From the IMG/VR virus record IMGVR_UViG_3300046796_000847, positions 1-37,390 of that record: a stretch of 37,390 bases of DNA. One strand, given 5' to 3'. The position numbers were made by a program, and so were the translations under genes. This stretch comes from a virus. Shown one piece after another: positions 3,028 to 25,110 of the stretch; within the stretch, counting starts at the first letter, position 1, and each line of letters opens with the position of its first letter. Below the pieces are notes generated by a model. The model did not search any database, was not told the origin of the DNA, and was given only the letters and a program-made list of their open reading frames with translations.

Positions 3028-3239
3028 GCGAGGGCCTCGCGGAAGCCGTCAAGAGCCGGCTGGTGGAGCAGCTGCTCGAGCCGTTCGATCGCGTCGCTGG
3101 CCTCAGAGCGCCAGCGGACAACCGGGACCTCGATGCCGGCCCGCCTGGCGAGGATCTCGAGGCGGTCGCGCTGGCGGTCGCTCGGGAGGCGGTTCCGTCG
3201 GCGGGTCCGCTCAGCGTGTAGGAAGGCTGGCGACCTCAT
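3024..3239 (-). CDS. Small basic hypothetical protein
   Basis: This encodes 71 residues. The N-terminus is very Arg-rich (ERTRRRNRLPSDRQRDRLE), followed by an amphipathic helix (EASDAIERLEQLLHQ). It overlaps its neighbours by ATGA on both sides, which supports it being real. No family recognised. The basic part could bind nucleic acid. Confidence 0.6.
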   Translation of the reverse strand: MRSPAFLHAERTRRRNRLPSDRQRDRLEILARRAGIEVPVVRWRSEASDAIERLEQLLHQPALDGFREALA

Positions 3240-4339
3240 GCGCTCGCCTCCGCCTTGCTCGGGTCGAGCATCTGCTCGAAGAGCTCGATTGCCGCATCGC
3301 GGTGCTCATCGACGAATGGGACCGCCTTGCTGATCGCCTTCTTGACCCCGTCGTCGTTGCGGACCGCGTCGTAGACCTGGCTCCAAGTCGGCTTGGCAGG
3401 TAGGGCAGCGGCAGCGGCAGCGGCAGCGGCAGCGTCAGCGGCAGCGTCAGCGTCAGCGTCAGCGGCAGCGGCAGCGTCAGCGGCAGCGTCAGCGTCAGCG
3501 TCAGCGGCAGCGACAGCGTCAGCGGCAGCGGCAGCGACAGCGTCAGCGGCAGCGTCAGCGGCAGCGACAGCGGCAGCGACAGCGGCAGCGTCAGCGGCAG
3601 CGACAGCGGCAGCGTCAGCGGCAGCGACAGCGGCAGCGTCAGCGGCAGCGACAGCGGCAGCGACAGCGACAGCGGCAGCGTCAGCGGCAGCGTCAGCGTC
3701 AGCGTCAGCGGCAGCGGCAGCGTCAGCGGCAGCGTCAGCGACAGCGACAGCGGCAGCGTCAGCGACAGCGACAGCGGCAGCGTCAGCGACAGCGAACGGC
3801 TTGCCTTCGGCTTCGAGCCGCTCCCTGACCTGGCGCCGGATCTCGCCGCGGAGCGTGCCGTAGGCGTTCGGGTGCTTCGCGCGGACCTCGTCGCGGACCT
3901 TGTAGAGCAGGTCGCGGAGTGCCGGGGTCCATTCGCTGATCTCCATGCCGCGCAGCTCGTCTGCTTTCGCGGTCATGCCGGCGAGCTCGAGCCAGTTGGG
4001 GAGGCCGGTGTTGATTACCCAGGCCGCCGCCAGCGCTTTGCGGGCATGGTCCTGGCCGTCGTCGCCTGTACCGCCCATTCGCCCGAGGAAGCGCTTGAGC
4101 AACTGTCGGTCCTCCGCCGAGAAGCGATCGTTCAGCCGCTGACCGTAGCGCCAGAGGACCGGGCTGACGCAGGGCGGGCAGTCGCCCCACTCCTCGCCGT
4201 AGATCCAGCCCTCCATCTCGAGGAGGCAGGCTTCGGGCGGCTTCGTCGGGTCGTCGGGCGCACCATGGTTGCCGTGCAGTAGCGGCAGATCCTTGGCGAT
4301 CGCCAGGCGCTCGGGGATTGGAGTGGCGGTGGGGGACAT
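3236..4339 (-). CDS. Conserved phage-type protein with a 130-residue Ala-X repeat array
   Basis: This encodes 367 residues from the ATG at 4339 (TGATG overlap with the gene before it). The N-terminal domain (about 1-180) has a Cys-containing conserved-looking core: ACLLEMEGWIYGEEWGDCPP, then CVSPVL and a LND motif, then WLELAGM. I recall this pattern from hypothetical proteins of actinobacterial phages and plasmids, some with Ala-rich tails. Residues 183-312 are 65 dipeptides, each Ala followed by Ala (29), Asp (22) or Val (14). A short C-terminal helical domain follows. A long alanine-rich helix or rod carrying periodic negative charge is likely. Function unknown. Confidence 0.8.
   Translation of the reverse strand: MSPTATPIPERLAIAKDLPLLHGNHGAPDDPTKPPEACLLEMEGWIYGEEWGDCPPCVSPVLWRYGQRLNDRFSAEDRQLLKRFLGRMGGTGDDGQDHARKALAAAWVINTGLPNWLELAGMTAKADELRGMEISEWTPALRDLLYKVRDEVRAKHPNAYGTLRGEIRRQVRERLEAEGKPFAVADAAAVAVADAAAVAVADAAADAAAAADADADAAADAAAVAVAAAVAAADAAAVAAADAAAVAAADAAAVAAAVAAADAAADAVAAAAADAVAAADADADAAADAAAAADADADAAADAAAAAAAAAALPAKPTWSQVYDAVRNDDGVKKAISKAVPFVDEHRDAAIELFEQMLDPSKAEASA
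3404..3793. repeat. Hexanucleotide array, 65 perfect-length units of G[G/T/A]CAGC
   Basis: The 390 bases are exactly 65 tandem hexamers. Five positions are invariant and only the second plus-strand base varies, among G, T and A, never C. On the coding strand each unit is GCT followed by GCC, GAC or GTC. Blocks of higher order are visible: a 24-base period (Val, Ala, Asp, Ala units) in units 24-36, and an Asp-Asp-Asp-Ala-Asp-Ala-type block that recurs at units 15-20, 49-54 and 56-61. Unit gain or loss keeps the reading frame. Confidence 0.97.
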
Positions 4340-4560
4340 CAACTCTCCTCGCTGGCGTCGTCGACGCCGTCGGTTACGTGTTCTTCGATGACTCGGCAGT
4401 AGCCGGCCGCGCAGAGGCTGTGCATCCAGCCCCGGCCCTCGACCTTGCGGATGTAGTGCTCGCCGGCGAGAACGGGGGCGGTGCACCCCTTGCAGGAGCC
4501 GTCGCGTTTGGCGAGGATTTCCGGCCCGAGAATGGGGACGGTGAGTTCGGCCACGGTCAT
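4339..4560 (-). CDS. Small Cys-rich putative zinc-finger protein
   Basis: This encodes 73 residues. The segment C-KG-C, followed about 20 residues later by HSLCAAGYC, could form a treble-clef-like or PARP-type-like zinc site (CKGCTAPVLAGEHY, then GWMHSLC). The ATG overlaps the replication gene's TGA (ATGA), and its stop overlaps the next ATG (TGATG). It is likely made in coupled fashion right after the replication initiator. Partner and function unknown. Confidence 0.7.
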   Translation of the reverse strand: MTVAELTVPILGPEILAKRDGSCKGCTAPVLAGEHYIRKVEGRGWMHSLCAAGYCRVIEEHVTDGVDDASEES

Positions 4561-5585
4561 GCCCTCTCCAGCTCCAGGGCGGTCTCATCGACGATCTCCA
4601 GGCCGGCCTTTATGCCGGTCTTGGCCAGGGCCGCAGCGATCAGCTCGCGGTAGTCGGAGAGGATCCCGCGGCCGCTCGAGTCGACGAGGACCAGGTCGGA
4701 CCCGCGGCGGCCGACGCCCTCGAGCGGAGCGATCCACCTGTCGAAGGCCTCGGCGTCGAGCGTCTCGCGGAGGTGGGTCTTGGTTTCCTCCCAGACCTCG
4801 ATCGCAGCCTGGTCCTCCATGACCATGACCGACTCCGCTTGGCGGCGGCCTTCGAACCTCGGACCCGGCATCGCGGCGAAGCCTTCGACGTCGTCGCGGC
4901 TTTTGAAGATCCGAGCGAGGTCGTCGAAGATCGCCCCGTCGCGGTTCGCGTGCCGGCCGCGCTTCATGTGGAAGTCGGAACCGGCGCAACCGGCGATCGC
5001 GCGGCGAAGCTCGTCCTCGCTCGAGTCGGCGATGCGAGCCTTCGTCAGTCGCCGGCGTTTCGGGGTGAACTGCGTCGAGCCGTTGCGACCGGTCAGGCTC
5101 TTCCAAAGCTCGAAGAGCTGCTCGGGAAGATCAAGGCCGTCCCCCCCTGGGGGACTATGGGGGTTGGTTCTTGACGGTTCCTTTGACGGTTCCCTATATA
5201 GACCGGTGTCGGATTTGTCCGGTAGAACCTGCTCGGATTGTCCGGTAGAAGCGTCACTGGTGTCCGGTTGAACGCCATCTGTCTTACCGGACAAATTGGC
5301 CGGTTGATTGAGATCGAGTCGAATCCGGTCGTGAGCGCGCCCGCGCCCCTGTGTCTGGGCCGTTCGTTCGCGGGCAAGCAGCCCTTCCCCCTCGAGCAGC
5401 TTCAGGTGCCGGCGTACGGTTCGCTCGTCGCAGCTGGTGTAGTCGGCGACGTGCTTCTCCCCCGGCCAGCAGACGCCGTCCTGGTCGGCGTGATCGGCGA
5501 CTTTGAGGAGTGTGAGAAGCGGGCCTTGGCCGAGCTCGCGACCGCGGCCGATCTCCCAGGCCCACTGGGATGCCCGGACGCTCAT
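4557..5585 (-). CDS. Phage replication initiator: winged helix, Phg_2220_C-like middle, DnaA domain I-like C-terminus
   Basis: This encodes 342 residues from the ATG at 5585 (ATGA overlap). Residues about 10-80 form a winged helix typical of replication initiators (LLTLLKVADHADQDG, then DERTVRRHLKLLEGEGLL). Residues 85-150 are a flexible polar linker. Residues about 155-240 (LFELWKSLTGRNG, KRRRLTKARI) resemble the conserved C-terminal domain of phage replication proteins. Residues about 260-342 resemble domain I of DnaA: IEVWEETKTHLRETLDAEAF, then DRWIAPLEG and LVLVDSSG. DnaA domain I normally binds DnaB helicase and regulators, so this end may recruit the host helicase (inference). The linker DNA carries iteron-like repeats, as in lambda O. 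Confidence 0.85.
   Translation of the reverse strand: MSVRASQWAWEIGRGRELGQGPLLTLLKVADHADQDGVCWPGEKHVADYTSCDERTVRRHLKLLEGEGLLARERTAQTQGRGRAHDRIRLDLNQPANLSGKTDGVQPDTSDASTGQSEQVLPDKSDTGLYREPSKEPSRTNPHSPPGGDGLDLPEQLFELWKSLTGRNGSTQFTPKRRRLTKARIADSSEDELRRAIAGCAGSDFHMKRGRHANRDGAIFDDLARIFKSRDDVEGFAAMPGPRFEGRRQAESVMVMEDQAAIEVWEETKTHLRETLDAEAFDRWIAPLEGVGRRGSDLVLVDSSGRGILSDYRELIAAALAKTGIKAGLEIVDETALELERA
5171..5308. other. Putative phage replication origin: iterons inside the initiator gene
   Basis: The core TTGTCCGGTAGAA is at 5215-5227 and 5238-5250. Variants are TGTCCGGTTGAA at 5261-5272, the inverted TTACCGGACAAATT at 5284-5297, and TTGGCCGGTTGAT at 5296-5308. Next to them, TTGACGGTTCC is repeated directly at 5171-5181 and 5183-5193, followed by an AT-rich CCTATATAG at 5193-5201. 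The first two cores are read in different codon frames, so the conservation is at the DNA level. An origin inside the initiator gene is the lambdoid arrangement. Function is inferred. Confidence 0.65.
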
Positions 5586-10313: not shown

Positions 10314-11330
10314 CTAGTGGTAGTACGGCGAAGCGATTCCGGCCTTGAAGGCCGCCAGGGCGCTCGGCGAGGTCGAGACGATCCAGTCCATGCCGGCCGC
10401 GTCAGCGACGTCGTTGAACCAGGAGAAGGCGACGATCTGCGGACGCGAGGGTAGGTAGGTGCCCAGGAACTCGGTGATCCAGGCCGCCTTGTCGCCGCCG
10501 TGCTCGGTGCAGCCCGTCTCGTTGATGATCACCGGCTTGCCGGGTGCGATCTGGGCGAGGCGGGTGAGCGTCGGGTCGAAGACTTCGGCGGGCGTCTGCC
10601 AGCGGTAGGGCTTGGCCGAGCCGACGCCCCAGTTGTAGGCGTCGATTCCGACGTAGTCGACGAACTCGGTGCCGGGGTAGTAGGGCGCAGGATCGGCGGC
10701 GGGCTCGTAGATCCCGTTGACGGCCCAGACGAACTTGATGTTCGTGGCGCCTTTCGCGCGCAGCCGGTCGGCCAGGTGACGCCAGGCCGCGATGTAGTCG
10801 GCCTTGCGGCTCCAGGCATACCAGGTGCCGTTCATCTCCCAGCCCGGGACGAGCAGGACCTCGCCCTTGAACGCGACGGCCTGGGCGGCGATGTTGTCGA
10901 TCGCGGCGTCCTTCAGCCCGGCGACGATTTCCCCGGTCGGGAAGGTCGTCTCGACCAGCGAAGTCGCTCCCCGCGCCGCGACCAGGCGCAGGGCGTTCAG
11001 GTCAAGAGCGCCGAAGGGCTGGCCGAAGGCGCAGAGGGAGACTTTCTTACCGGCGTCGGACTCGAAGCGATCCCAGACCGGCGCTTCCCAGGGCGCATCG
11101 TGTTCGGAGCCGTAGGCGCTGCCGTCCATGCGGGCGCCCCAGCGGATGCTCGCCGTGGGTGGAGGCGGCGCAGGCGCTGGCGGCGACGTTTCCAGGATCG
11201 TCCGCGCTTCACGCACCTTCGACTTGCCAGCCGCGAGCGCCTTCGCCGAGCTTGTGCTGCCCTTCTTGACTTCGACCTTCGCGAGTTCGGCGAGAGCGCC
11301 GCTGAGGAGATCCGTGGGGTTGGCGGCCAT
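10314..11330 (-). CDS. GH26-like glycoside hydrolase in the lysis cluster
   Basis: This encodes 338 residues from the ATG at 11330 (TGATG overlap with the endolysin stop). Residues 1-50 are helical, 50-60 a Pro-rich linker, and 62-338 a TIM-barrel-type hydrolase. The acid/base motif WEMNGTWYAWS (E165) and the nucleophile IINETG (E271) match family GH26 or close clan GH-A relatives, usually endo-mannanases or related glycanases. There is no signal peptide. It may be a virion enzyme or a co-lysin attacking host surface polysaccharide after holin action. A second GH26-like domain sits in the baseplate fusion. The substrate cannot be told from sequence. Confidence 0.8.
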   Translation of the reverse strand: MAANPTDLLSGALAELAKVEVKKGSTSSAKALAAGKSKVREARTILETSPPAPAPPPPTASIRWGARMDGSAYGSEHDAPWEAPVWDRFESDAGKKVSLCAFGQPFGALDLNALRLVAARGATSLVETTFPTGEIVAGLKDAAIDNIAAQAVAFKGEVLLVPGWEMNGTWYAWSRKADYIAAWRHLADRLRAKGATNIKFVWAVNGIYEPAADPAPYYPGTEFVDYVGIDAYNWGVGSAKPYRWQTPAEVFDPTLTRLAQIAPGKPVIINETGCTEHGGDKAAWITEFLGTYLPSRPQIVAFSWFNDVADAAGMDWIVSTSPSALAAFKAGIASPYYH

Positions 11331-14161: not shown

Positions 14162-14767
14162 CTAGATTTCGGACGGCAGGATTTCCGCCAGGGCTTGGAC
14201 GGTTGAAAAAGCTGCGGCGAGGTCGGAGACCGTTTCCCAGTTGGTCGAGGCGGCGACATCGGCGACGGTCACGCCGTTGATCGCTTCAACGTCGAGGATC
14301 TCCCAGGCCGGGACCGCCGCCCTCACGATCGCCGCAGTGCGGGCCGGGTTCGGCGTCTGACTCAGAAGTGTGCGGACGTAGGTATGGCCGACTTCCGGGG
14401 TGCGCGGGTGGATGATGACGAGCGATTCGTCGTCTTCCAGCGTGCGCTGCACCGCGATTCGGATCGAAGGCTCCTGGCCGCGTTTCCATCCGGTCGGCTC
14501 GCGGATTTCGTTGCGCTGCTGAAGCTCGTTCATCTCCGGGGTCAGAACCACTCCGACGTACTGCGCGAGGTAGGGCAGGCTCTCGGCTGGGCAGTTGTCG
14601 ACGTCGAAGAGGACCGCCCAGGGTGCCGCGTCGTCATGTTCCCGGACGATCTCGTAGACGCCCTCCAATGGGCCTGCCCACGCATCGCAGAACGCTTTGA
14701 GGTCGCCGCTTACATCGTCCTCGATGTGGAAGCCGAGGGCATTGAACAGGAGTTCCCCAACGGTCAT
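14162..14767 (-). CDS. Baseplate protein, P2 gpI-like
   Basis: This encodes 201 residues. The pattern of an N-terminal helical part, then ESLPYLAQYVGV, an R-E-I-R-E-P-T-G-W-K-R-G turn and SIRIAVQRTL matches P2 gpI-type tail proteins, which join the baseplate wedge to fibres. It follows directly after a gpJ-like gene and precedes a fibre gene, the usual J-I-H order. ATG at 14767, adjacent to the gpJ-like stop. Confidence 0.8.
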   Translation of the reverse strand: MTVGELLFNALGFHIEDDVSGDLKAFCDAWAGPLEGVYEIVREHDDAAPWAVLFDVDNCPAESLPYLAQYVGVVLTPEMNELQQRNEIREPTGWKRGQEPSIRIAVQRTLEDDESLVIIHPRTPEVGHTYVRTLLSQTPNPARTAAIVRAAVPAWEILDVEAINGVTVADVAASTNWETVSDLAAAFSTVQALAEILPSEI

Positions 14768-15934
14768 CTATTCGACCGTGACGGTGAGCGTTTTCGGCGT
14801 CGTGAGCGGTGCCAGTCCGGTGAGGGCCAGGTCTTTGGCTTCTTTGGAGCCGCCGGCTTTCGCCAGTTTCAGCGAGACGACCCGGCCGACGCCCTGCACC
14901 CGGTCAACCTCGGAGATCAGCTCGTTGAGGTAGACCGTCGCGGTGTTCACCCAACCCGTCGAGGACGGATCTCCGACGGTCGGCAGGCCCCAGTTCGCGG
15001 GATCGAGGTACGCGGAGAGTCGGGCTTCGATGGCCGCTTTGACCGCTTCGGGGTCGAACCCCGGGAGGACGGTCGCTTTGGCTTCGATGTCGACTTCGGT
15101 GATAGTCGGATCGCCGACGAAGTTGAGGACACCGCTCGGGACCTTGGCCTCCTGACGTTCCTGCAGGACTTCCTTCGTCGGCGTCGAGAGTTTCGCCCCG
15201 GCTGCGCCCACCGCAATGACGGTGACGGCGAGGGCTTCTTCTTTCGCTTTTTCTCCATTCCACGCGGGGATGCAGAGGGCCCGGGCGACTCCTGCCACGG
15301 CCCGAGCGTCGATCTCGAAATCACGCGGGACGATCAGCGAGAGCGAGAGAAGCTGAAGCTCCTGAATCAGCCGGTCAAGGTAGGCGTCTTCGTCCTCTTC
15401 GTCCACGCCGCCCGACGTTTCGCCGAGCAGGGCGACCGATTCCACGAAGGCGACGGCGGAGATCGGTTCGGGGGTGGCGGAGAGGCCGTTGCCTTCCACG
15501 CCCGGTTCGATCGCTTCGAGGACGACCTCGCCCGCTTTGGTCGTGGTGGCGCCGGGCGCGACCGTCACATCGGAGACGACGCGGAAGCCGAAGGATTCAT
15601 CACCCGTCCCAGCGATGCTGACTTCGGTCCCGGCGGGAATCGTGTAACCGGCGTTGTCGACCATCGTCCAAGTGGTCAGTGCGGTGGCCGGCGCCGCCAG
15701 GATCGGCGGCACGTTGGCGATCGTCTCGCCGAACTTCTTGAACATCGCTGCGGAGGTGACCGCGGCCTGGTCGCGGACGGTGGAGGCGATGCGGGCGAAG
15801 GCTTTGGTCAGCCAGGTCTCGAGATCGCCCTCGGCAGGTTCCCAGTCTTCGAACTGGGCCTCGATCGCTTCGATGACCTCCTGCTCGAGGGCGGCCGGGT
15901 CGTTGTCAATGAGCGCCTCGGTGAAGGTGGTCAC
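14768..15934 (-). CDS. Baseplate J-like wedge protein
   Basis: This encodes 388 residues from a GTG at 15934 (GTGA overlap). It has the features of the P2 gpJ / Mu gp47 family: a helical start, then TIPAGTEVSIAGTGDESFGF, the VVLEAIEPGVEGNGL segment (family G-x-x-G-N), DEDAYLDRLIQEL, RDFEIDARAVAGVARALCIP, and a C-terminal SEVDRVQGVGRVVSL. This protein forms the arms of the contractile-tail baseplate. With the sheath gene it shows that the phage has a contractile tail. Confidence 0.9.
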   Translation of the reverse strand: MTTFTEALIDNDPAALEQEVIEAIEAQFEDWEPAEGDLETWLTKAFARIASTVRDQAAVTSAAMFKKFGETIANVPPILAAPATALTTWTMVDNAGYTIPAGTEVSIAGTGDESFGFRVVSDVTVAPGATTTKAGEVVLEAIEPGVEGNGLSATPEPISAVAFVESVALLGETSGGVDEEDEDAYLDRLIQELQLLSLSLIVPRDFEIDARAVAGVARALCIPAWNGEKAKEEALAVTVIAVGAAGAKLSTPTKEVLQERQEAKVPSGVLNFVGDPTITEVDIEAKATVLPGFDPEAVKAAIEARLSAYLDPANWGLPTVGDPSSTGWVNTATVYLNELISEVDRVQGVGRVVSLKLAKAGGSKEAKDLALTGLAPLTTPKTLTVTVE

Positions 15935-16263
15935 GCTGCCTCCGGTCTCAGGGTCACGTCCAACTCGCCGAGCTCGCCCAGCCGCGCCTCACCGATCAGA
16001 TGCGCTCTCGGCTCCCACTTCGCGACTGCAGTGAGATAGGCCTCAGCGCTCGGGTTCGGCGGCAATTGCTCGAAGGTCGGATCTACCAATCCGTATTCGG
16101 GCTCCTCGATCCGCGAGCCGACTGGGGTGCGCAGGACCGCCTCGACGCATTGCTCGATCTCCTCGGCGGAGTCCTGCTCGACCTGGGCGACGATGCCGTC
16201 GACGACGCGGAACGGATGCTTGAGATGGGGCGCCTTCAGTTTGGAGACCCATCGAGCTGACAT
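15931..16263 (-). CDS. Possible internal translation product: free gp25-like wedge protein
   Basis: This in-frame 110-residue product would start at the ATG at 16263 (MSARW), preceded by AGGAAGG at good spacing inside the fusion gene. The length is close to that of stand-alone gp25/gpW proteins (about 110-140 residues). A wedge assembly needing gp25 copies without the bulky N-terminal enzyme would explain such a site. Sequence-supported but not proven. Confidence 0.4.
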   Translation of the reverse strand: MSARWVSKLKAPHLKHPFRVVDGIVAQVEQDSAEEIEQCVEAVLRTPVGSRIEEPEYGLVDPTFEQLPPNPSAEAYLTAVAKWEPRAHLIGEARLGELGELDVTLRPEAA

Positions 16264-17874
16264 GGATGAGCCTTCCTGCGGCTCACCGGGCAACGGCACT
16301 TTCAGTGCGTCGGCGAAGCTCGCGACAGGGGGATCGAGGTAATAGGGGTCTTCGAGTGCTTCCTTGACCGCTGCGGTGGCGGATTCGCTTGACTCGATCG
16401 CCCAGTCCGCTCGCCCTTTCGTGTGTTCGATGTACCAGTTGAACAAGACCAGCGCCCGGACGTTGGGCATTTCGAAGGGCAGCGTCCACTGGAGAAACTG
16501 CCGGAGCCATTCGGCCTTGTGCGGCGGTTCGGGTCCCGCTTTCGTGAACCACTCAGAGCAAGCAACCTCGCAGATGATCTGCGGCTTGGTCGGGCATTTT
16601 TCGACCAGCCGTTCATAGGTTTCGAGGAAGACGGCCTGGCTCGTGCGCCAGCCCAGCGGGACGGCAGGATTCTGGCCGTTGTAGCCGTCGAACCCGACCC
16701 AATCCACGTATTCGTCGCCCGGATACATATTGCCCGCTTCCCCGGTGAAGGGGTCCGTTTCGGGCGTCGGAGCGAAGAGGATGTTCGGACACCAGACGAA
16801 GGTGACGTTGTGGGCGATCGAGGAGACGATCCCGTGCACTCGCCGCCACGCTTCGACGTATTCGGCCCCGGTCACGTAGGTCATCCCCCACGGGAACCCT
16901 TCCCGCAGGTTCATCTCCCACCAGAGCCGCAGGTAGAACGGGTGCCCCCAGTCGCGGGCCTCTTTGGCCCATGCGGTGATCCCGTCGTCGTAGACCTCGG
17001 CATTGACGTCCTGAATGACGTTGGCCGGACCGCCGAGGGACTTCATCGGGATCGCGCCGCGGGCGTGGATGCGGTCGCTGGCGCCCGCGAAGAAGCCATC
17101 CCAGACCGGGCCTGTGCCTGCTTCCCAGGGGTCGCCCATGTGGACGATCCCCACTTTGCGCCCGGCGTCCGCCTCGAACTGGTCCCAGAGCGGTTCGTTG
17201 ATGGGGGCCGGTTCGCAGGGGCCCGAGGCTTCCGTTTCGGCTATGTCTGCGCCCCAGTAACGGGGGAGCTGCGTCGGCGGCGGGTCCGGTTCGACGCCGA
17301 CCCAGGAGTTGTCAGTCGAGCCCTGGTCGTCGTTAATCGCCAGACCGTCGATGAGAATGGGAGTGCCGGATTTGACCCCGCCCGGGTTGCCGAAACGGGC
17401 CTTGTTGATCCCCAGGTTGCCGACCGCGAATGCCTGTTCGGCGGCCTTCTGGACGCCGTTGAAGCGCCAGGAGATCAGGCCGTTTCCTTCGGCGTTGATC
17501 TGGCACAGGACCTCGGCTACGAACCATTCACCAGCCGTGATTTTCGGCGGGGTTTCCGTCGGATGCGCGACCCCGTTCCACATCCGCAGTTCGCCGGCTT
17601 CGTTGATCGAGAGTTCGAGCTTCGTCGCTTCGCCGTTGAGAAGCCGCAGGATCGCCGTCGTGTTTTCGGGCAGTTTGGCGAGCTTGCCAGCGACCCGGTA
17701 GAGGTATTTTCGACCGAGGACGCCAGCCGGGTGAACCTCCACGACGTTGAAGGCGCCCGAGGCACAGGCCGCGCTCGCGGCGCCGGCCCACGGGTTAGTC
17801 GCTTCTTCAACGACTGAGCCGACCGTGGGCGTCGTGATCGGCCAGAAGTCGAAGTTCTCCGACGCGAGACGCAT
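15931..17874 (-). CDS. Lectin-like + GH26-like + gp25-like baseplate fusion protein
   Basis: This encodes 647 residues. Residues about 1-195 are a LamG/concanavalin-like jelly roll (RKYLYRVAGKLAKLP, ELRMWNGV, GEWFVAEVLCQINAEG). Residues about 205-505 are a GH26-like barrel, with acid/base E320 in LRLWWEMN and nucleophile E436 in IICEVACSEW. Residues about 538-647 match the GPW/gp25 baseplate wedge family (FRVVDGIVAQVEQDSAEEIE, then VLRTPVGSR and EPEYGLVDP). So a surface-glycan enzyme is fused to a core baseplate subunit. An internal Shine-Dalgarno (AGGAAGG, 7 bases before the ATG at 16263) could also yield free gp25-like protein. The enzyme may degrade envelope glycan at attachment. Confidence 0.85.
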   Translation of the reverse strand: MRLASENFDFWPITTPTVGSVVEEATNPWAGAASAACASGAFNVVEVHPAGVLGRKYLYRVAGKLAKLPENTTAILRLLNGEATKLELSINEAGELRMWNGVAHPTETPPKITAGEWFVAEVLCQINAEGNGLISWRFNGVQKAAEQAFAVGNLGINKARFGNPGGVKSGTPILIDGLAINDDQGSTDNSWVGVEPDPPPTQLPRYWGADIAETEASGPCEPAPINEPLWDQFEADAGRKVGIVHMGDPWEAGTGPVWDGFFAGASDRIHARGAIPMKSLGGPANVIQDVNAEVYDDGITAWAKEARDWGHPFYLRLWWEMNLREGFPWGMTYVTGAEYVEAWRRVHGIVSSIAHNVTFVWCPNILFAPTPETDPFTGEAGNMYPGDEYVDWVGFDGYNGQNPAVPLGWRTSQAVFLETYERLVEKCPTKPQIICEVACSEWFTKAGPEPPHKAEWLRQFLQWTLPFEMPNVRALVLFNWYIEHTKGRADWAIESSESATAAVKEALEDPYYLDPPVASFADALKVPLPGEPQEGSSMSARWVSKLKAPHLKHPFRVVDGIVAQVEQDSAEEIEQCVEAVLRTPVGSRIEEPEYGLVDPTFEQLPPNPSAEAYLTAVAKWEPRAHLIGEARLGELGELDVTLRPEAA

Positions 17875-17889
17875 GGAAGACCTTTCGGG

Positions 17890-18183
17890 CTAGAAGGAAA
17901 CGTCGGGTTCGGCGGCGTCGGGCCACCACGCGAGGATCACCGGGGGTCCTGCGTCGGGATCGCCGAGCACCGCCCGATCGCCCTTCTTCGGGTAGAAGAC
18001 CCCGGCCGCGGTGACGTAAGGCATCCAGGGCATCGGGTCCTCGGAGAGCTGCTCGGAGAAACTGGGGACGACGCAGCGGACCTCCTGGCCGGGTTCGGTC
18101 GCGTCATCGAGGACCGTTGCCTCGTGGAGGACCGGGCCGGGTACGTCGACGGCCGAGGCGGTGAGGTCGCGGGGTTCGGGCAT
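17890..18183 (-). CDS. Small OB-fold baseplate protein (gpV-like)
   Basis: This encodes 97 residues from the ATG at 18183 (TGATG overlap with the hub stop). It is beta-rich with EVRCVVPSFSEQL, then FYPKKGDRAVLGDPDAGPPV and ILAWWP, the typical OB-fold ending of P2 gpV/gp5-type central spike or hub proteins. It lacks the long C-terminal beta-helix needle, so it is the OB part only. The place between hub and gp25 genes fits a spike/hub component. Confidence 0.65.
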   Translation of the reverse strand: MPEPRDLTASAVDVPGPVLHEATVLDDATEPGQEVRCVVPSFSEQLSEDPMPWMPYVTAAGVFYPKKGDRAVLGDPDAGPPVILAWWPDAAEPDVSF

Positions 18184-20150
18184 CAGAGCCCCTTCGGGTG
18201 GCGCTTGACGTTGAACTCGGCGAGATAGGACGGACTCGGGGTGAATTCCTCCGCCCCGCCACTCGCGCTTGAATTCTGCCCCCCCCCGCTCTGGAAGAAC
18301 TTGCCCGCGATTTCGATGATCGTGTGTTCGGTGGTGGCGCTGCCGGTGCCCGTGTGGACGTAGACCGTCACCGATTCGCCGGGGCCCGCCTCGCCCCATC
18401 CGGCGAGTCCTTTGGTGTCCAAGCGCCCCTGGAGGAAGCCGCCGACATCGAGGATCTTGGAGACGAAGCCCGAGCAGTCATAGCCCGATTCGCTGAACCC
18501 GCCCCAGACATAGGGCGGGTTCTTGTTGGCGATCTTTTCGGCCGTTTCCAGCATCCGCTGCACGGTCGGATTACTGGCCGCGCTGCCGGTGGTGCTCGGA
18601 GAGGTCGTTTTCGTCGCCGGCGCCGGCTCGGGCAGCGGCGCGGTCGGCTTGCGGAGCTTCACCGTGATCCGCTTGAGGTCGCTCACATCGGAGTCGCGGA
18701 GCGGCGCTTCGATGGATTCGACCAGATAGCGGCCCCTGCCCTCATGCGTCGCCGCCACGACCGCCGAGCTGACGCCCTGCTTCTGGCCCTTCTTGTTGGC
18801 CTTCACCGGGGCGTCTCCGCTGCCGATGCTCGCTGGGCCGTAGCCCTCCAGGGTCACGACGGAGCCGGGAGGCGGCGTCCACTTCTTCGCGTCGGCTTCG
18901 ACCGTGACTTCGGTGACCTTGCGGTTCGCGTTGAAGCTAAAGCTGACCTTCTCGATGCCGTCTGTTGAGGGCTTCGCTTCGCCCTTCTCGCGCTTGATCG
19001 CGAGCCGGACCTGGGAGCGGAAGAGGTCTGTCTCGGCGATGTAGAAGAAGCGATCACCAACCCAGAAGGCGCGCCAGTTGACTTCTTTCGCCAGGCGCTT
19101 GATCCCGGTCCAGTAGTCCTCGCCCTTCTTGATTTCGAACTTGTAGGGCTCGGTGACGGTGGTCGTGGAACCGCTGCCGAGCGTGCCGCCGCCGAAGGCT
19201 TCGAGCCACTTCGCGGCCTCGCTGGAGAAGCGTTCGTAGGGCGCAGCGCCGTCGCGGTTGCGCTGCACAGTCGTCGCGATCTCGGCTGGCGAGAAGCCCG
19301 GGTTGGCCTTGAAGACGCCGATCGCGCCCGGTTCACCGGAGTTGTAGCCGGTCAGGAAACCCTTGACCGATTCCTCGACGTTCGTGTGGTCGGTGTTGGG
19401 GGCGGTGAACGATTCCTGCTCGAGGATGTTCGGCGTCAACTCGCCGATATGTGACTCGTCCATGAGCGCAACCAGGAGTGCCAACTCCACCTGCTGGGGG
19501 ACGCTGAGGGACTCCGCGACGCGAAGGGCGCGGTTGGCCTTGTCGATCTGGGCAGAGGTGGCCTTCACCCCGGCGACGGTCAGGCCCTTGACATCTCCGA
19601 TCCCCTTGCCACGTTCTGTTTTCGCGTTCGCCGCAGCCTGTTTGCCCTGCCGTTCGGTTTTGATCGGCTGGACGACGTGGAGCTGTGGACAGGTGATCTC
19701 TGCCCGGGGGTGGACTTCCTTGATGCGAGCGACGATGAACTCCGCCCGCGTCATGTGCTTCGCGTCCGCTTTGGCTTTCGGGCCCCTGCGGTAAGCCTTG
19801 ACCCGCCCGCCGATTTCCCGCAACTCCGCGACGTTGCGGTCCTCCAGAGTGAGTGTCACCTGCGGCGGGGCGAGAACGGCGCCCATATAGCGGAACCAGA
19901 GGCCGTCGAGTAGCGCGTCGAATTTTTCAGAGAGCAGGGCAGCGTCGAGGAACGCCATGCTGGAGTCCTGTAGAGCAAGGCTGATCGAGCTGGACCCCGC
20001 GATGGTGCGGATGATCGTTGGCCCCGGGAGGATCGCCCCACCTATCTCGATCGCGACCTTGCGGCCGTCGTGCAGGGTGAGATCGGTGAGCGAGGAGTCG
20101 ATGCCCTGGACGCGGCTGACCACTTGGGCCGGGGCTACGGCGGGCGTCAC
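18183..20150 (-). CDS. Baseplate hub / tail lysin with C-terminal NlpC/P60 domain
   Basis: This encodes 655 residues from a GTG at 20150 (GTGA overlap). The N-terminal and middle parts have the hub layout of gpD/XkdQ-type proteins: DLTLHDGRKVAIEIGGAI and TIAGSSSISLALQDSS, then EIKKGEDYWTGIKRLAKEVN, AFWVGDRFFYIAE, and GSVVTLEGYG. An inserted region (about 170-320; LSVPQQVELALLVALMDESH) resembles a small helical lysozyme-like or linker domain. Residues about 535-655 are NlpC/P60, with C559 in GYDCSGFVSK and H609 in TEHTIIE. It probably punctures and cuts the peptidoglycan at DNA entry. Confidence 0.85.
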   Translation of the reverse strand: MTPAVAPAQVVSRVQGIDSSLTDLTLHDGRKVAIEIGGAILPGPTIIRTIAGSSSISLALQDSSMAFLDAALLSEKFDALLDGLWFRYMGAVLAPPQVTLTLEDRNVAELREIGGRVKAYRRGPKAKADAKHMTRAEFIVARIKEVHPRAEITCPQLHVVQPIKTERQGKQAAANAKTERGKGIGDVKGLTVAGVKATSAQIDKANRALRVAESLSVPQQVELALLVALMDESHIGELTPNILEQESFTAPNTDHTNVEESVKGFLTGYNSGEPGAIGVFKANPGFSPAEIATTVQRNRDGAAPYERFSSEAAKWLEAFGGGTLGSGSTTTVTEPYKFEIKKGEDYWTGIKRLAKEVNWRAFWVGDRFFYIAETDLFRSQVRLAIKREKGEAKPSTDGIEKVSFSFNANRKVTEVTVEADAKKWTPPPGSVVTLEGYGPASIGSGDAPVKANKKGQKQGVSSAVVAATHEGRGRYLVESIEAPLRDSDVSDLKRITVKLRKPTAPLPEPAPATKTTSPSTTGSAASNPTVQRMLETAEKIANKNPPYVWGGFSESGYDCSGFVSKILDVGGFLQGRLDTKGLAGWGEAGPGESVTVYVHTGTGSATTEHTIIEIAGKFFQSGGGQNSSASGGAEEFTPSPSYLAEFNVKRHPKGL

Positions 20151-20788
20151 GGGAGGTTCAGGGTTCGGTTAGCAGGGAGGGAACGGAGCGGATCGTGCAG
20201 TCCGTTCTTCTTCCCGAGCGCCTTCCAGAGCTTCCTGTCGCCGAGGACTCTCGCGGCAATGCTCTCTAACGTGTCGCCGGCGCGGGTGGTGTAGGTGAGC
20301 GCCTGGCCCTTGCCGATGCCACGCCGGGCCTTCGTGCGCCGCCTGATCGTGTCGGGGCGGACGTACTCGAGAAGAGACAGCGTGAATTCGATCCGCAGGA
20401 GGTCGCCGTCGTTGCTCTTGATGATGCTCGCGGTGTTCGGGGTGATCCCGCCATCGGGCAACACCCAGGACTTGCCCTCGGGGGCGTCGATCGGGCCATA
20501 GACTTTGAAGACGGGCGGCCTGCGCTCATCGCCGTTCGGATCGCGGCCGAGCTTTTTGACCGTGTTCCACTCGCGCTGTACGGAGTCGCCCTTGGCGTAG
20601 CCGTCGAGGAGCAGCGGCACCGCTTCGGTGAGAGGTTCTTGCCCTTCCCAGTCGGTGACAGCGACATCATCTTGACGCGGGATCGCGATCCAGCTACCGA
20701 ACCCGCCCGTAGGGATCGCCGGGCCGTCGCCCATCGGGATTTCGATGTCTATCCCCGGGTCCTTGGCGATGATGCGGATGGGCTTCAT
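20147..20788 (-). CDS. LysM-containing tail protein
   Basis: This encodes 213 residues. The last 50 residues form a LysM domain (TYTTRAGDTLESIAARVLGD, then LWKALGKKNGL, ending NRTLNLP). The N-terminal part is beta-rich with PLLLDGYAKGDSVQREW and RIEFTLSLLEYVRP, as in XkdP/gpX-type baseplate proteins of contractile phages, which sit between the tape measure and hub. LysM may hold the tail tip to peptidoglycan or to the hub. ATGA overlap with the tape measure stop. Confidence 0.85.
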   Translation of the reverse strand: MKPIRIIAKDPGIDIEIPMGDGPAIPTGGFGSWIAIPRQDDVAVTDWEGQEPLTEAVPLLLDGYAKGDSVQREWNTVKKLGRDPNGDERRPPVFKVYGPIDAPEGKSWVLPDGGITPNTASIIKSNDGDLLRIEFTLSLLEYVRPDTIRRRTKARRGIGKGQALTYTTRAGDTLESIAARVLGDRKLWKALGKKNGLHDPLRSLPANRTLNLP

Positions 20789-23691: not shown

Positions 23692-25110
23692 CTACAGCGC
23701 CTCCTTGACCACTTCGATTTCCACCCGCTCGGCCGAGGGGCTCATCTTCACCGCGAGGATCGCCCGCAGCTTGCCTTCGCCGATCGTCGTGTCGGTGTTG
23801 ACCTGATCGCCCGTCTCGACCGTGAAGGCGTCTTCGGGGGTGTCCCCGAACAGCGCTTCCTGATCGAAGAGAGGCAGCAGCACCTCGCCGACCAGATCGC
23901 CGTTGAACTTGGCGATCTCATGCGTCGTGATCTGCGCGAACAGGTGGCGCTCGGCGATGGCTTCCGCCCGAGAGCAGATCGCCATGTTGAGCCGGGCGTT
24001 CGACAACTGCAGCCAGGTCGTGTCGACCAGGGGATTGATCAGCGTGACGTTGTCGTAGGGGCGCGGGACGCTATTCAACTCCCGGATCACGTTGACGCCC
24101 GCTTCGGAGAGCACGCCGCGGTTTTCGCCTGACCACGGCACTTGCGAGACGTCCGTGCAGTAGCGAGCGAGGTGGTTGACGCCGGCGATCGCCTCGTTGG
24201 GGTTGCCCCCTTCGCCGTCGTTCCGAGCTGCCAGCCCGGCCATCAACGCACAGGGCGGCACCGTCCGGGTCGTGCCCGGGGTGACGCCGGGAATGACGAC
24301 CCACGGGGCGAAGAGGCCGCCGTAGCGGGCGGTGGCTTCCGCCCGCAGGGTCGACGCCTGCGAGGTCAGAGTGGCGACCGTTGCCGTGTCAGTGCCGTCC
24401 AACAGCGCGACCCGGTTCTTCGCTTTCGCGTGAGCCAGGATCGCTTTCTGGGCTTCGGCCGAGGTCCGGCCGGGCGAGGAGACCTGGCCCGGCCCGAGGT
24501 GTGCCGAGAACAGCGCCAGCGCCGCTTCGTGCTGGGTCTCGGTGATGTTTTCCCGATCGTCGGTTCCCGAGGCCAGCGTTTTCGTCGCTGCGGCGGGGTT
24601 ACCTTTGCCGAGGTCGACAAGGCGGATGTAGGGAGAGTTCGCGAAGTAGGCAACGGCCTCGGCGTTGCTTGCGAACCCGGCGTGTTCGTCGACGACGACG
24701 CCGCCGAGTTTGACGACCGCCTTGAATTTCGCGCTTTCTGTCGTGGTGATGAATTCGAGGCCATTCGCCCAGGAGCCATCCGAGGTGGCGTTGATCGTCA
24801 GCGTGTTTTCGGAGCTGCCGTTTTTCGCCGTGATCGTCGCGAGTGCAGCCGCCGGCCCACCTTCGCGGACGACGTACAGACGGCTGCCGCCCTCTTCGAA
24901 GAAGGTCTGAGCGGCGTCATAGAGCGTGGTCCCACCCGAGCGCGCACCGAGGTGAGCCACATAGGACACCATGTTGAGGATCAGGACGGGTTCATTGATC
25001 GGCCCTTTTTCGCTCTGGCCGGTGACGAACCATGTGCCGGTATCGGTCGGGGGCGACGAAGATGGCGCGACTGACCCCGATGTGACGGTTATTCCAGGTG
25101 TAGTGGTCAT
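23692..25110 (-). CDS. Contractile tail sheath protein
   Basis: This encodes 472 residues. Sheath-type features are an N-terminal extended strand (TPGITVTSGSVAPSS), then GTWFVTGQSEKGPINEPVLI and LYDAAQTFFEEGGSRLYVVR, a central beta domain, APWVVIPG, and a conserved-looking C-terminal half (NVIRELNSVPRPYDNVTLIN, then FGDTPEDAFTVETG) ending in a strand that would hook the next subunit. It shows the phage is a myovirus. ATGA overlap with the small gene before it. Confidence 0.95.
   Translation of the reverse strand: MTTTPGITVTSGSVAPSSSPPTDTGTWFVTGQSEKGPINEPVLILNMVSYVAHLGARSGGTTLYDAAQTFFEEGGSRLYVVREGGPAAALATITAKNGSSENTLTINATSDGSWANGLEFITTTESAKFKAVVKLGGVVVDEHAGFASNAEAVAYFANSPYIRLVDLGKGNPAAATKTLASGTDDRENITETQHEAALALFSAHLGPGQVSSPGRTSAEAQKAILAHAKAKNRVALLDGTDTATVATLTSQASTLRAEATARYGGLFAPWVVIPGVTPGTTRTVPPCALMAGLAARNDGEGGNPNEAIAGVNHLARYCTDVSQVPWSGENRGVLSEAGVNVIRELNSVPRPYDNVTLINPLVDTTWLQLSNARLNMAICSRAEAIAERHLFAQITTHEIAKFNGDLVGEVLLPLFDQEALFGDTPEDAFTVETGDQVNTDTTIGEGKLRAILAVKMSPSAERVEIEVVKEAL

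What the first reader, a model, noticed from the sequence alone, without database searches (positions are those of the whole stretch)
15931..17874. GH26-like glycan hydrolase fused to a core baseplate gp25-like wedge subunit
The gp25-like protein is normally a small stand-alone wedge subunit. Here it follows a lectin-like domain and a GH26-like barrel with both catalytic Glu candidates. This would put an enzyme into each wedge. A good internal Shine-Dalgarno before MSARW suggests two products from one gene.
Basis: partly seen in the sequence, partly recalled or inferred. Interest (0 to 1): 0.72.

Follow-up and report, generated by a model that had tools for sequence, protein, structure and literature searches.

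The report
Sugar-cutting enzyme fused to phage baseplate
A soil-type contractile-tailed phage carries a sugar-cutting enzyme joined to gp25, the small protein that starts assembly of its contractile tail sheath, so each virion probably has several built-in slime-cutting blades; two related phages load the same small protein with other modules, one of them a known sugar-binding type.

Summary
Confirmed: window 15931-17874, minus strand, is one 647-codon ORF encoding a lectin-like jelly roll (about 1-190), a GH26 barrel with both catalytic glutamates (about 205-513; E320, E436), a linker, and a gp25/sheath-initiator domain (538-647). The GH26 barrel matches CtLic26A (Foldseek 6.9e-21). A profile of this gp25 subfamily retrieves only gp25-family proteins from the PDB (T4 gp25, Pvc9, PA0617, TssE). 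The frame is authentic: coding signal runs through the junction, and residues 1-533 align end to end (41%, 9e-116) with a tail protein of another phage. That homology stops just before the codon where stand-alone gp25 genes begin, so a whole cassette was joined to gp25. The proposed internal start is that ancestral start; its Shine-Dalgarno is ordinary. Among 46 gp25 frames screened, three carry real coding additions: this one, a CBM5/12 plus jelly-roll insert (L012), and an unassigned 438-residue extension (L139). Both GH26 genes of the window lie in a virus-only clade whose closest cellular relatives sit in polysaccharide loci. Best reading: a virion-borne exopolysaccharide depolymerase displayed in up to six copies by the sheath initiator. 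Location, activity and copy number are inferred. New variant of a known kind.

The parts
15931..17874 (-). Whole fusion gene, 647 aa (lectin-like, GH26, linker, gp25)
   Evidence: continuous coding signal
17305..17874 (-). Lectin-like jelly-roll domain, residues 1-190
   Evidence: 37% identity to L015 residues 25-223; Foldseek viral ConA-like/LamG hits; model pLDDT about 60-78 for residues 51-150, low outside
16336..17262 (-). GH26 barrel, residues 205-513
   Evidence: Pfam, PDB, model and Foldseek
16915..16917 (-). Putative acid/base Glu320 (WWEMN)
   Evidence: kept in 32 of 33 homologues; aligned with the HEAN Glu of CtLic26A
16567..16569 (-). Putative nucleophile Glu436 (ICEVA)
   Evidence: kept in 32 of 32 homologues; aligned with the AEFA Glu of CtLic26A
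16264..16335 (-). Linker, residues 514-537; homologous to the linker of the L015 tail protein up to residue 533
   Evidence: 0 of 5000 shuffles reach the linker score
15931..16263 (-). gp25-like sheath-initiator / wedge domain, residues 538-647, with stop codon
   Evidence: 53% identity to stand-alone gp25 of L001
16261..16263 (-). Internal ATG (M538), at the place where stand-alone gp25 genes start
   Evidence: alignments
16271..16277 (-). AGGAAGG, Shine-Dalgarno-like, 7 nt before the internal ATG
   Evidence: -7.4 kcal/mol, reached by 15.5% of random 16-mers
14768..15934 (-). gpJ-like wedge protein, directly downstream
   Evidence: Pfam Baseplate_J 9.8e-25
14162..14767 (-). gpI-like wedge protein
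   Evidence: Pfam Tail_P2_I 9.1e-6
17890..18183 (-). Small gene between hub and fusion; spike-like by position only
   Evidence: start MPEPRD at 18183; no family match
18183..20150 (-). Hub-like protein with C-terminal NlpC/P60-like domain
20147..20788 (-). LysM baseplate protein
23692..25110 (-). Tail sheath (contractile tail)
   Evidence: phrog_23 2.4e-33
10314..11330 (-). Second, separate GH26 protein of the same phage
   Evidence: Pfam 7.5e-11; 38% identity to the fused one; separate viral subclade

Best explanation
The gene encodes a virion structural protein. Its C-terminal gp25 domain is built into the baseplate as the sheath initiator, one copy per wedge, and it carries at its N-terminus a transplanted lectin-GH26 cassette that points outward. 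The lectin holds, and the GH26 cleaves, a surface polysaccharide (exopolysaccharide or capsule) of an actinobacterial host, probably a relative of Solirubrobacterales, so that the tail can reach the wall; hub and other NlpC/P60 enzymes then act on peptidoglycan. Shown: the fusion, the domain identities, intact catalytic residues, cassette boundaries, and that other gp25s of this group carry additions. Inferred: presence in virions, six copies, outward orientation, substrate and host.
For: One ORF with unbroken coding signal. GH26 fold with both Glu. gp25 identity by profile and synteny between hub and gpJ/gpI. Residues 1-533 align end to end with the N-terminus of a siphophage-type tail protein in L015, whose C-terminal part is 52% identical to a stand-alone tail protein beside a separate GH26 gene in L017: the cassette is a tail module that is fused or free in different phages. 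The fused domain is a core morphogenetic part, so the enzyme must go where gp25 goes if the protein is not cut. A second gp25 (L012) carries CBM5/12 and a jelly roll that weakly matches a GTA head-spike domain; a third (L139) carries a 438-residue extension. Viral GH26s form one clade (100/99) near Solirubrobacterales/Actinomycetota enzymes, and those of L039, L040, L043 and L044 lie among glycosyltransferase and polysaccharide-export genes. Literature: six gp25-like copies in AlgoCIS and a wedge protein there (Alg11) with CBMs (PMC8894135); one gp25 homologue per wedge in XM1 (PMC10457771); wedge protein BW1 disulfide-linked to the tail spike in Milano (PMC10811340).
Against: No virion proteomics or activity data. 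The AlphaFold model of gp25 is poor (pLDDT 51 alone), so where the N-terminus points was not modelled. A 310-residue barrel plus lectin next to the sheath could clash unless the linker places it outside. A proteolytic cut or internal start could free gp25. No second example of GH26 on gp25 was found. The host link rests on gene kinship only.
Confidence: 0.66

Rival explanations
1. Two products from one gene: the full 647-aa protein and a 12-kDa gp25 made from the internal ATG at 16263, giving mixed baseplates in which only some wedges carry the enzyme.
For: ATG at the place where relatives start gp25; SD energy -7.4 kcal/mol, like the main start at -7.6.
Against: 15.5% of random 16-mers are as good, and three other in-frame ATGs have stronger SD-like sequence. 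The position is explained by ancestry: the cassette homology ends at residue 533. In L012 the addition is an internal insert, and in L139 only a GTG without SD precedes PHL, so separate gp25 is not a shared feature.
Confidence: 0.25
2. The GH26 is an auxiliary metabolic gene that degrades soil plant polysaccharide for the infected host, and its link to gp25 is incidental.
For: Soil-virus surveys list glycoside hydrolases among putative auxiliary genes (PMC11222151). GH26 enzymes are classically mannanases and glucanases.
Against: It is translationally joined to a baseplate protein and its cassette is joined to another tail protein elsewhere. Viral GH26 genes sit in tail modules after Dit or tape-measure genes. 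Cellular kin lie in polysaccharide-synthesis loci.
Confidence: 0.08
3. Assembly or sequencing artefact: two neighbouring genes joined by a lost stop codon.
For: Single metagenomic contig; no second contig with this exact fusion found.
Against: The linker up to residue 533 is homologous to the linker of another fused protein, so the frame is already a fusion linker there. Coding signal is continuous. Only 4 codons separate the cassette's end from the gp25 start, with no space for a separate gene end and leader.
Confidence: 0.03
4. The lectin-GH26 part binds but no longer cleaves: a receptor-binding arm with a dead or very narrow enzyme.
For: The fused copy is the most divergent of its subclade (branch 1.03), has insertions, and lacks the Trp found at position 326 in 30 of 33 homologues. 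The phage keeps a second GH26.
Against: Both catalytic Glu, M321, N322, D396 and Y398 are kept.
Confidence: 0.15

Closest known systems
gp25 / sheath initiator (T4 gp25, P2 gpW, Pvc9, PA0617, XM1 gp15, Alg9)
   Same: Domain family by profile, gene position between hub/spike and gpJ/gpI
   Different: Most known members are stand-alone proteins of about 100-150 aa; here a 537-residue enzyme-bearing extension precedes the domain
SPO1-like wedge fusion, Listeria phage A511 gp102 (BW1 + LysM BW4; PMC10811340)
   Same: gp25 orthologue covalently joined to another domain
   Different: Partner there is another baseplate core domain, not an enzyme or lectin
AlgoCIS Alg11 with two carbohydrate-binding modules (PMC8894135)
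   Same: Wedge protein extended by glycan-binding modules
   Different: gpJ-type wedge rather than gp25; no hydrolase
Agrobacterium phage Milano BW1-tail spike disulfide (PMC10811340)
   Same: The wedge protein that touches the sheath serves as attachment point for the receptor-binding spike
   Different: Disulfide link to a separate spike, not a gene fusion
CtLic26A (Clostridium thermocellum GH26 lichenase)
   Same: Fold (TMt 0.83-0.87) and catalytic Glu pair
   Different: 25% identity; secreted bacterial enzyme, not virion-borne; substrate of the phage enzyme unknown
Capsule depolymerases on phage tail spikes and fibres
   Same: Proposed role: local hydrolysis of a surface polysaccharide
   Different: Usually trimeric beta-helix spikes on fibre adaptors; here a TIM barrel on the sheath initiator

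Membership tests
GH26 (CAZy clan A) | (beta/alpha)8 barrel related to GH26 enzymes | tested here: met
   Pfam above gathering score; Foldseek 6.9e-21 to CtLic26A
GH26 (CAZy clan A) | Two catalytic Glu on strands 4 and 7 | tested here: met
   E320 and E436 aligned with CtLic26A and conserved
GH26 (CAZy clan A) | Hydrolysis of beta-mannan, beta-1,3-xylan or mixed-linked glucan | not testable with these tools
   needs enzyme assay
gp25-like sheath initiator (PF04965 / phrog_43) | Sequence profile of the family | tested here: met
   phrog_43 9e-8; subfamily profile finds only gp25-family chains in PDB, best 2.8e-8; Pfam PF04965 alone is below its cut-off
gp25-like sheath initiator (PF04965 / phrog_43) | Predicted structure matches gp25 | tested here: inconclusive
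   model pLDDT 51; best Foldseek hits are sheath initiators but E 0.04 or worse
gp25-like sheath initiator (PF04965 / phrog_43) | Gene order hub/spike - gp25 - gpJ - gpI in a contractile tail operon | tested here: met
gp25-like sheath initiator (PF04965 / phrog_43) | Six copies docking the first sheath ring | not testable with these tools
   needs cryo-EM
Virion-associated polysaccharide depolymerase | Enzyme part of a structural tail protein | tested here: met
   covalent fusion to gp25; cassette fused to another tail protein in L015
Virion-associated polysaccharide depolymerase | Present in virions and cleaves host surface glycan | not testable with these tools
   no isolate
Auxiliary metabolic gene | Free metabolic enzyme not part of the virion | tested here: not met
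   fused to a baseplate protein

The most novel reading that the evidence does not exclude
In contractile phages of Actinomycetota the small wedge proteins (gp25, and gpI in L001) act as a general, repeatedly used platform for exchangeable glycan-binding and glycan-cleaving modules. Because gp25 is the part that starts sheath assembly and contraction, glycan engagement by the module could be directly coupled to the firing of the tail.
Probability: 0.2. Interest if true: 0.72.

Novelty: new variant of a known kind. Interest (0 to 1): 0.56.

Why it matters
gp25 is among the most conserved and least decorated parts of contractile tails. Finding it joined to a hydrolase, and in other phages to a carbohydrate-binding insert and to a further large extension, suggests a shortcut by which a tail can carry an enzyme without fibres or spikes. 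It also gives a sequence-level argument that members of a virus-only GH26 clade are parts of tails aimed at host slime, not auxiliary genes for soil carbon, which bears on how viral carbohydrate enzymes are counted in soil surveys.

Tried and rejected
Long open frames around gp25 in high-GC genomes: 14 of 46 screened frames had more than 90 upstream codons, but 11 of these are out-of-frame artefacts by GC3 (L123, L127-L131 and others), so frame length alone was rejected as evidence of fusion. Genome-collection scan with the gp25 alignment found nothing. Eight records with the related gp25 had no GH26 elsewhere on the contig, and no GH26 record had this gp25, so GH26-gp25 is so far unique. The extension of L139 had no Pfam, NCBIfam or PDB match; it looks beta-helix-like by eye but that is not claimed. 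Recent duplication of GH26 inside the window was rejected: the two copies belong to separate viral subclades. A joint alignment with distant gp25 rows misaligned them and was not used for modelling. The literature search found no gp25-hydrolase fusion, but the library lacks most subscription papers.

Full report
What is there. The window is a 37.4-kb virus record with a contractile-tail gene order on the minus strand: terminase, portal, capsid, sheath, tube, tape measure, LysM protein, hub with NlpC/P60-like domain, a small spike-like gene, the gene in question, gpJ, gpI (terminase, portal, capsid and tube named from sequence and gene order only). ORF 15931-17874 is 647 aa, open throughout.

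Domains. Residues 297-400 match Pfam GH26 above its gathering score and residues 231-507 match CtLic26A, a GH26 lichenase, in the PDB (2.8e-11). The AlphaFold model gives a confident barrel, and Foldseek places it on CtLic26A (6.9e-21, TMt 0.83-0.87). E320 and E436 are kept in 32 of 33 and 32 of 32 aligned relatives. The N-terminal part is a beta-sandwich whose viral structural neighbours are concanavalin-A-like lectins. The C-terminal 110 residues match phrog_43 baseplate wedge subunit (9e-8); Pfam alone is sub-threshold, but a profile of twelve relatives finds only gp25-family proteins in the PDB: T4 gp25, Pvc9, PA0617, the AlgoCIS homologue (7aeb), TssE. The model of this domain is poor, and its Foldseek list, headed by sheath initiators, is only suggestive.

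Is the fusion real? Three arguments. First, third-position GC is high across the domains and the junction. Second, residues 1-533 align over their whole length with residues 25-534 of a 1077-aa tail protein in viral contig L015 (41%, 9e-116), including the linker (0 of 5000 shuffles). Third, the homology ends four codons before M538, where stand-alone gp25 genes of relatives start. So a cassette of lectin, GH26 and linker has been placed in frame before an intact gp25 gene. In L015 the same cassette precedes a tail protein that is a separate gene, 52% identical, next to a separate GH26 gene in L017. The cassette is therefore a mobile tail module.

The internal start. The ATG at 16263 is preceded by AGGAAGG at 7 nt. 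Its pairing energy (-7.4) equals that of the main start (-7.6), but 15.5% of random 16-mers in the window do as well and three in-frame ATGs inside the GH26 part score better. Its position is explained by ancestry. It may still work; there is no evidence that it does.

How unusual? Relatives L001, L002, L008, L009, L011 and L013 and isolated phages Sonny and Cantare have stand-alone gp25. A search of 399 genomes of the same class as a Solirubrobacterales genome and 396 of its phylum, with viral contigs, gave 46 gp25 frames that were screened. A coding-signal test left three with real additions: the window; L012, where CBM5/12 (3.2e-7) and a jelly roll are inserted between the first strand and the first helix of gp25; and L139, a prophage gene with 438 extra residues without a recognised family. 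The jelly roll of L012 and an insert in the gpI protein of L001 are both related to a CBM_4_9 domain of an L015 tail protein.

Origin and likely target. In a tree of 47 GH26 domains both window copies and seven IMG/VR copies form a virus-only clade (100/99), near cellular enzymes of Solirubrobacterales and other Actinomycetota (the fork is unresolved); the fused copy groups with L014 and L015 (97/94) and the free copy with L017-L019 (100/96). The cellular relatives in L039, L040, L043 and L044 stand beside glycosyltransferases and, in L044, a polysaccharide exporter. This favours a bacterial exopolysaccharide as substrate, by the same logic as hydrolases encoded in exopolysaccharide operons; it is an inference.

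How it probably works. Solved tails have one gp25-like protein per wedge, six in all, lying on the core bundle and holding the first sheath ring (PMC8894135, PMC10457771). In phage Milano the sheath-contacting wedge protein BW1 is disulfide-linked to the tail spike (PMC10811340), and in AlgoCIS a wedge protein carries carbohydrate-binding modules (PMC8894135). Here the enzyme is put on gp25 itself. Up to six enzymes would surround the baseplate, cut the slime and let the tail reach the wall. Whether binding also helps trigger contraction is open.

Verdict. It is a new variant of a known kind: a virion depolymerase on a scaffold for which I found no precedent. Presence in virions, copy number, orientation, host and substrate remain untested.

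Noticed in passing
window 10314-11330 (-): A second GH26 protein in the same phage, with both catalytic Glu motifs (GWEMN, INETG), in a viral subclade distinct from the fused one; it overlaps by one base with an NlpC/P60-like gene whose relative lies about 4 kb from a GH26 gene in L017.
   Followed up: partly
L001 7482-8609: The gpI homologue of the nearest relative is 376 aa instead of 201 and carries an extra N-terminal part related to a CBM_4_9 domain in an L015 tail protein, so a second wedge protein also bears a glycan-type module.
   Followed up: partly
L139 8235-9857: Thermoleophilia-class prophage gp25 with a 438-residue N-terminal coding extension that matches no family; beta-helix-like by eye only.
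   Followed up: partly
L039, L040, L043, L044: Cellular GH26 genes, several in tandem, inside polysaccharide-biosynthesis neighbourhoods of Solirubrobacterales and Chloroflexi.
   Followed up: partly
window 3236-4588 (-): ORF with a long low-complexity run of Ala, Asp and Val (AVADAAADAAA...) in a predicted early-region protein.
   Followed up: no
PDB 9qgl_9A (PlPVC1 baseplate): A 239-aa gp25-like chain with its gp25 domain at residues 130-211, a solved example of a gp25 with an N-terminal extension; not examined further.
   Followed up: no
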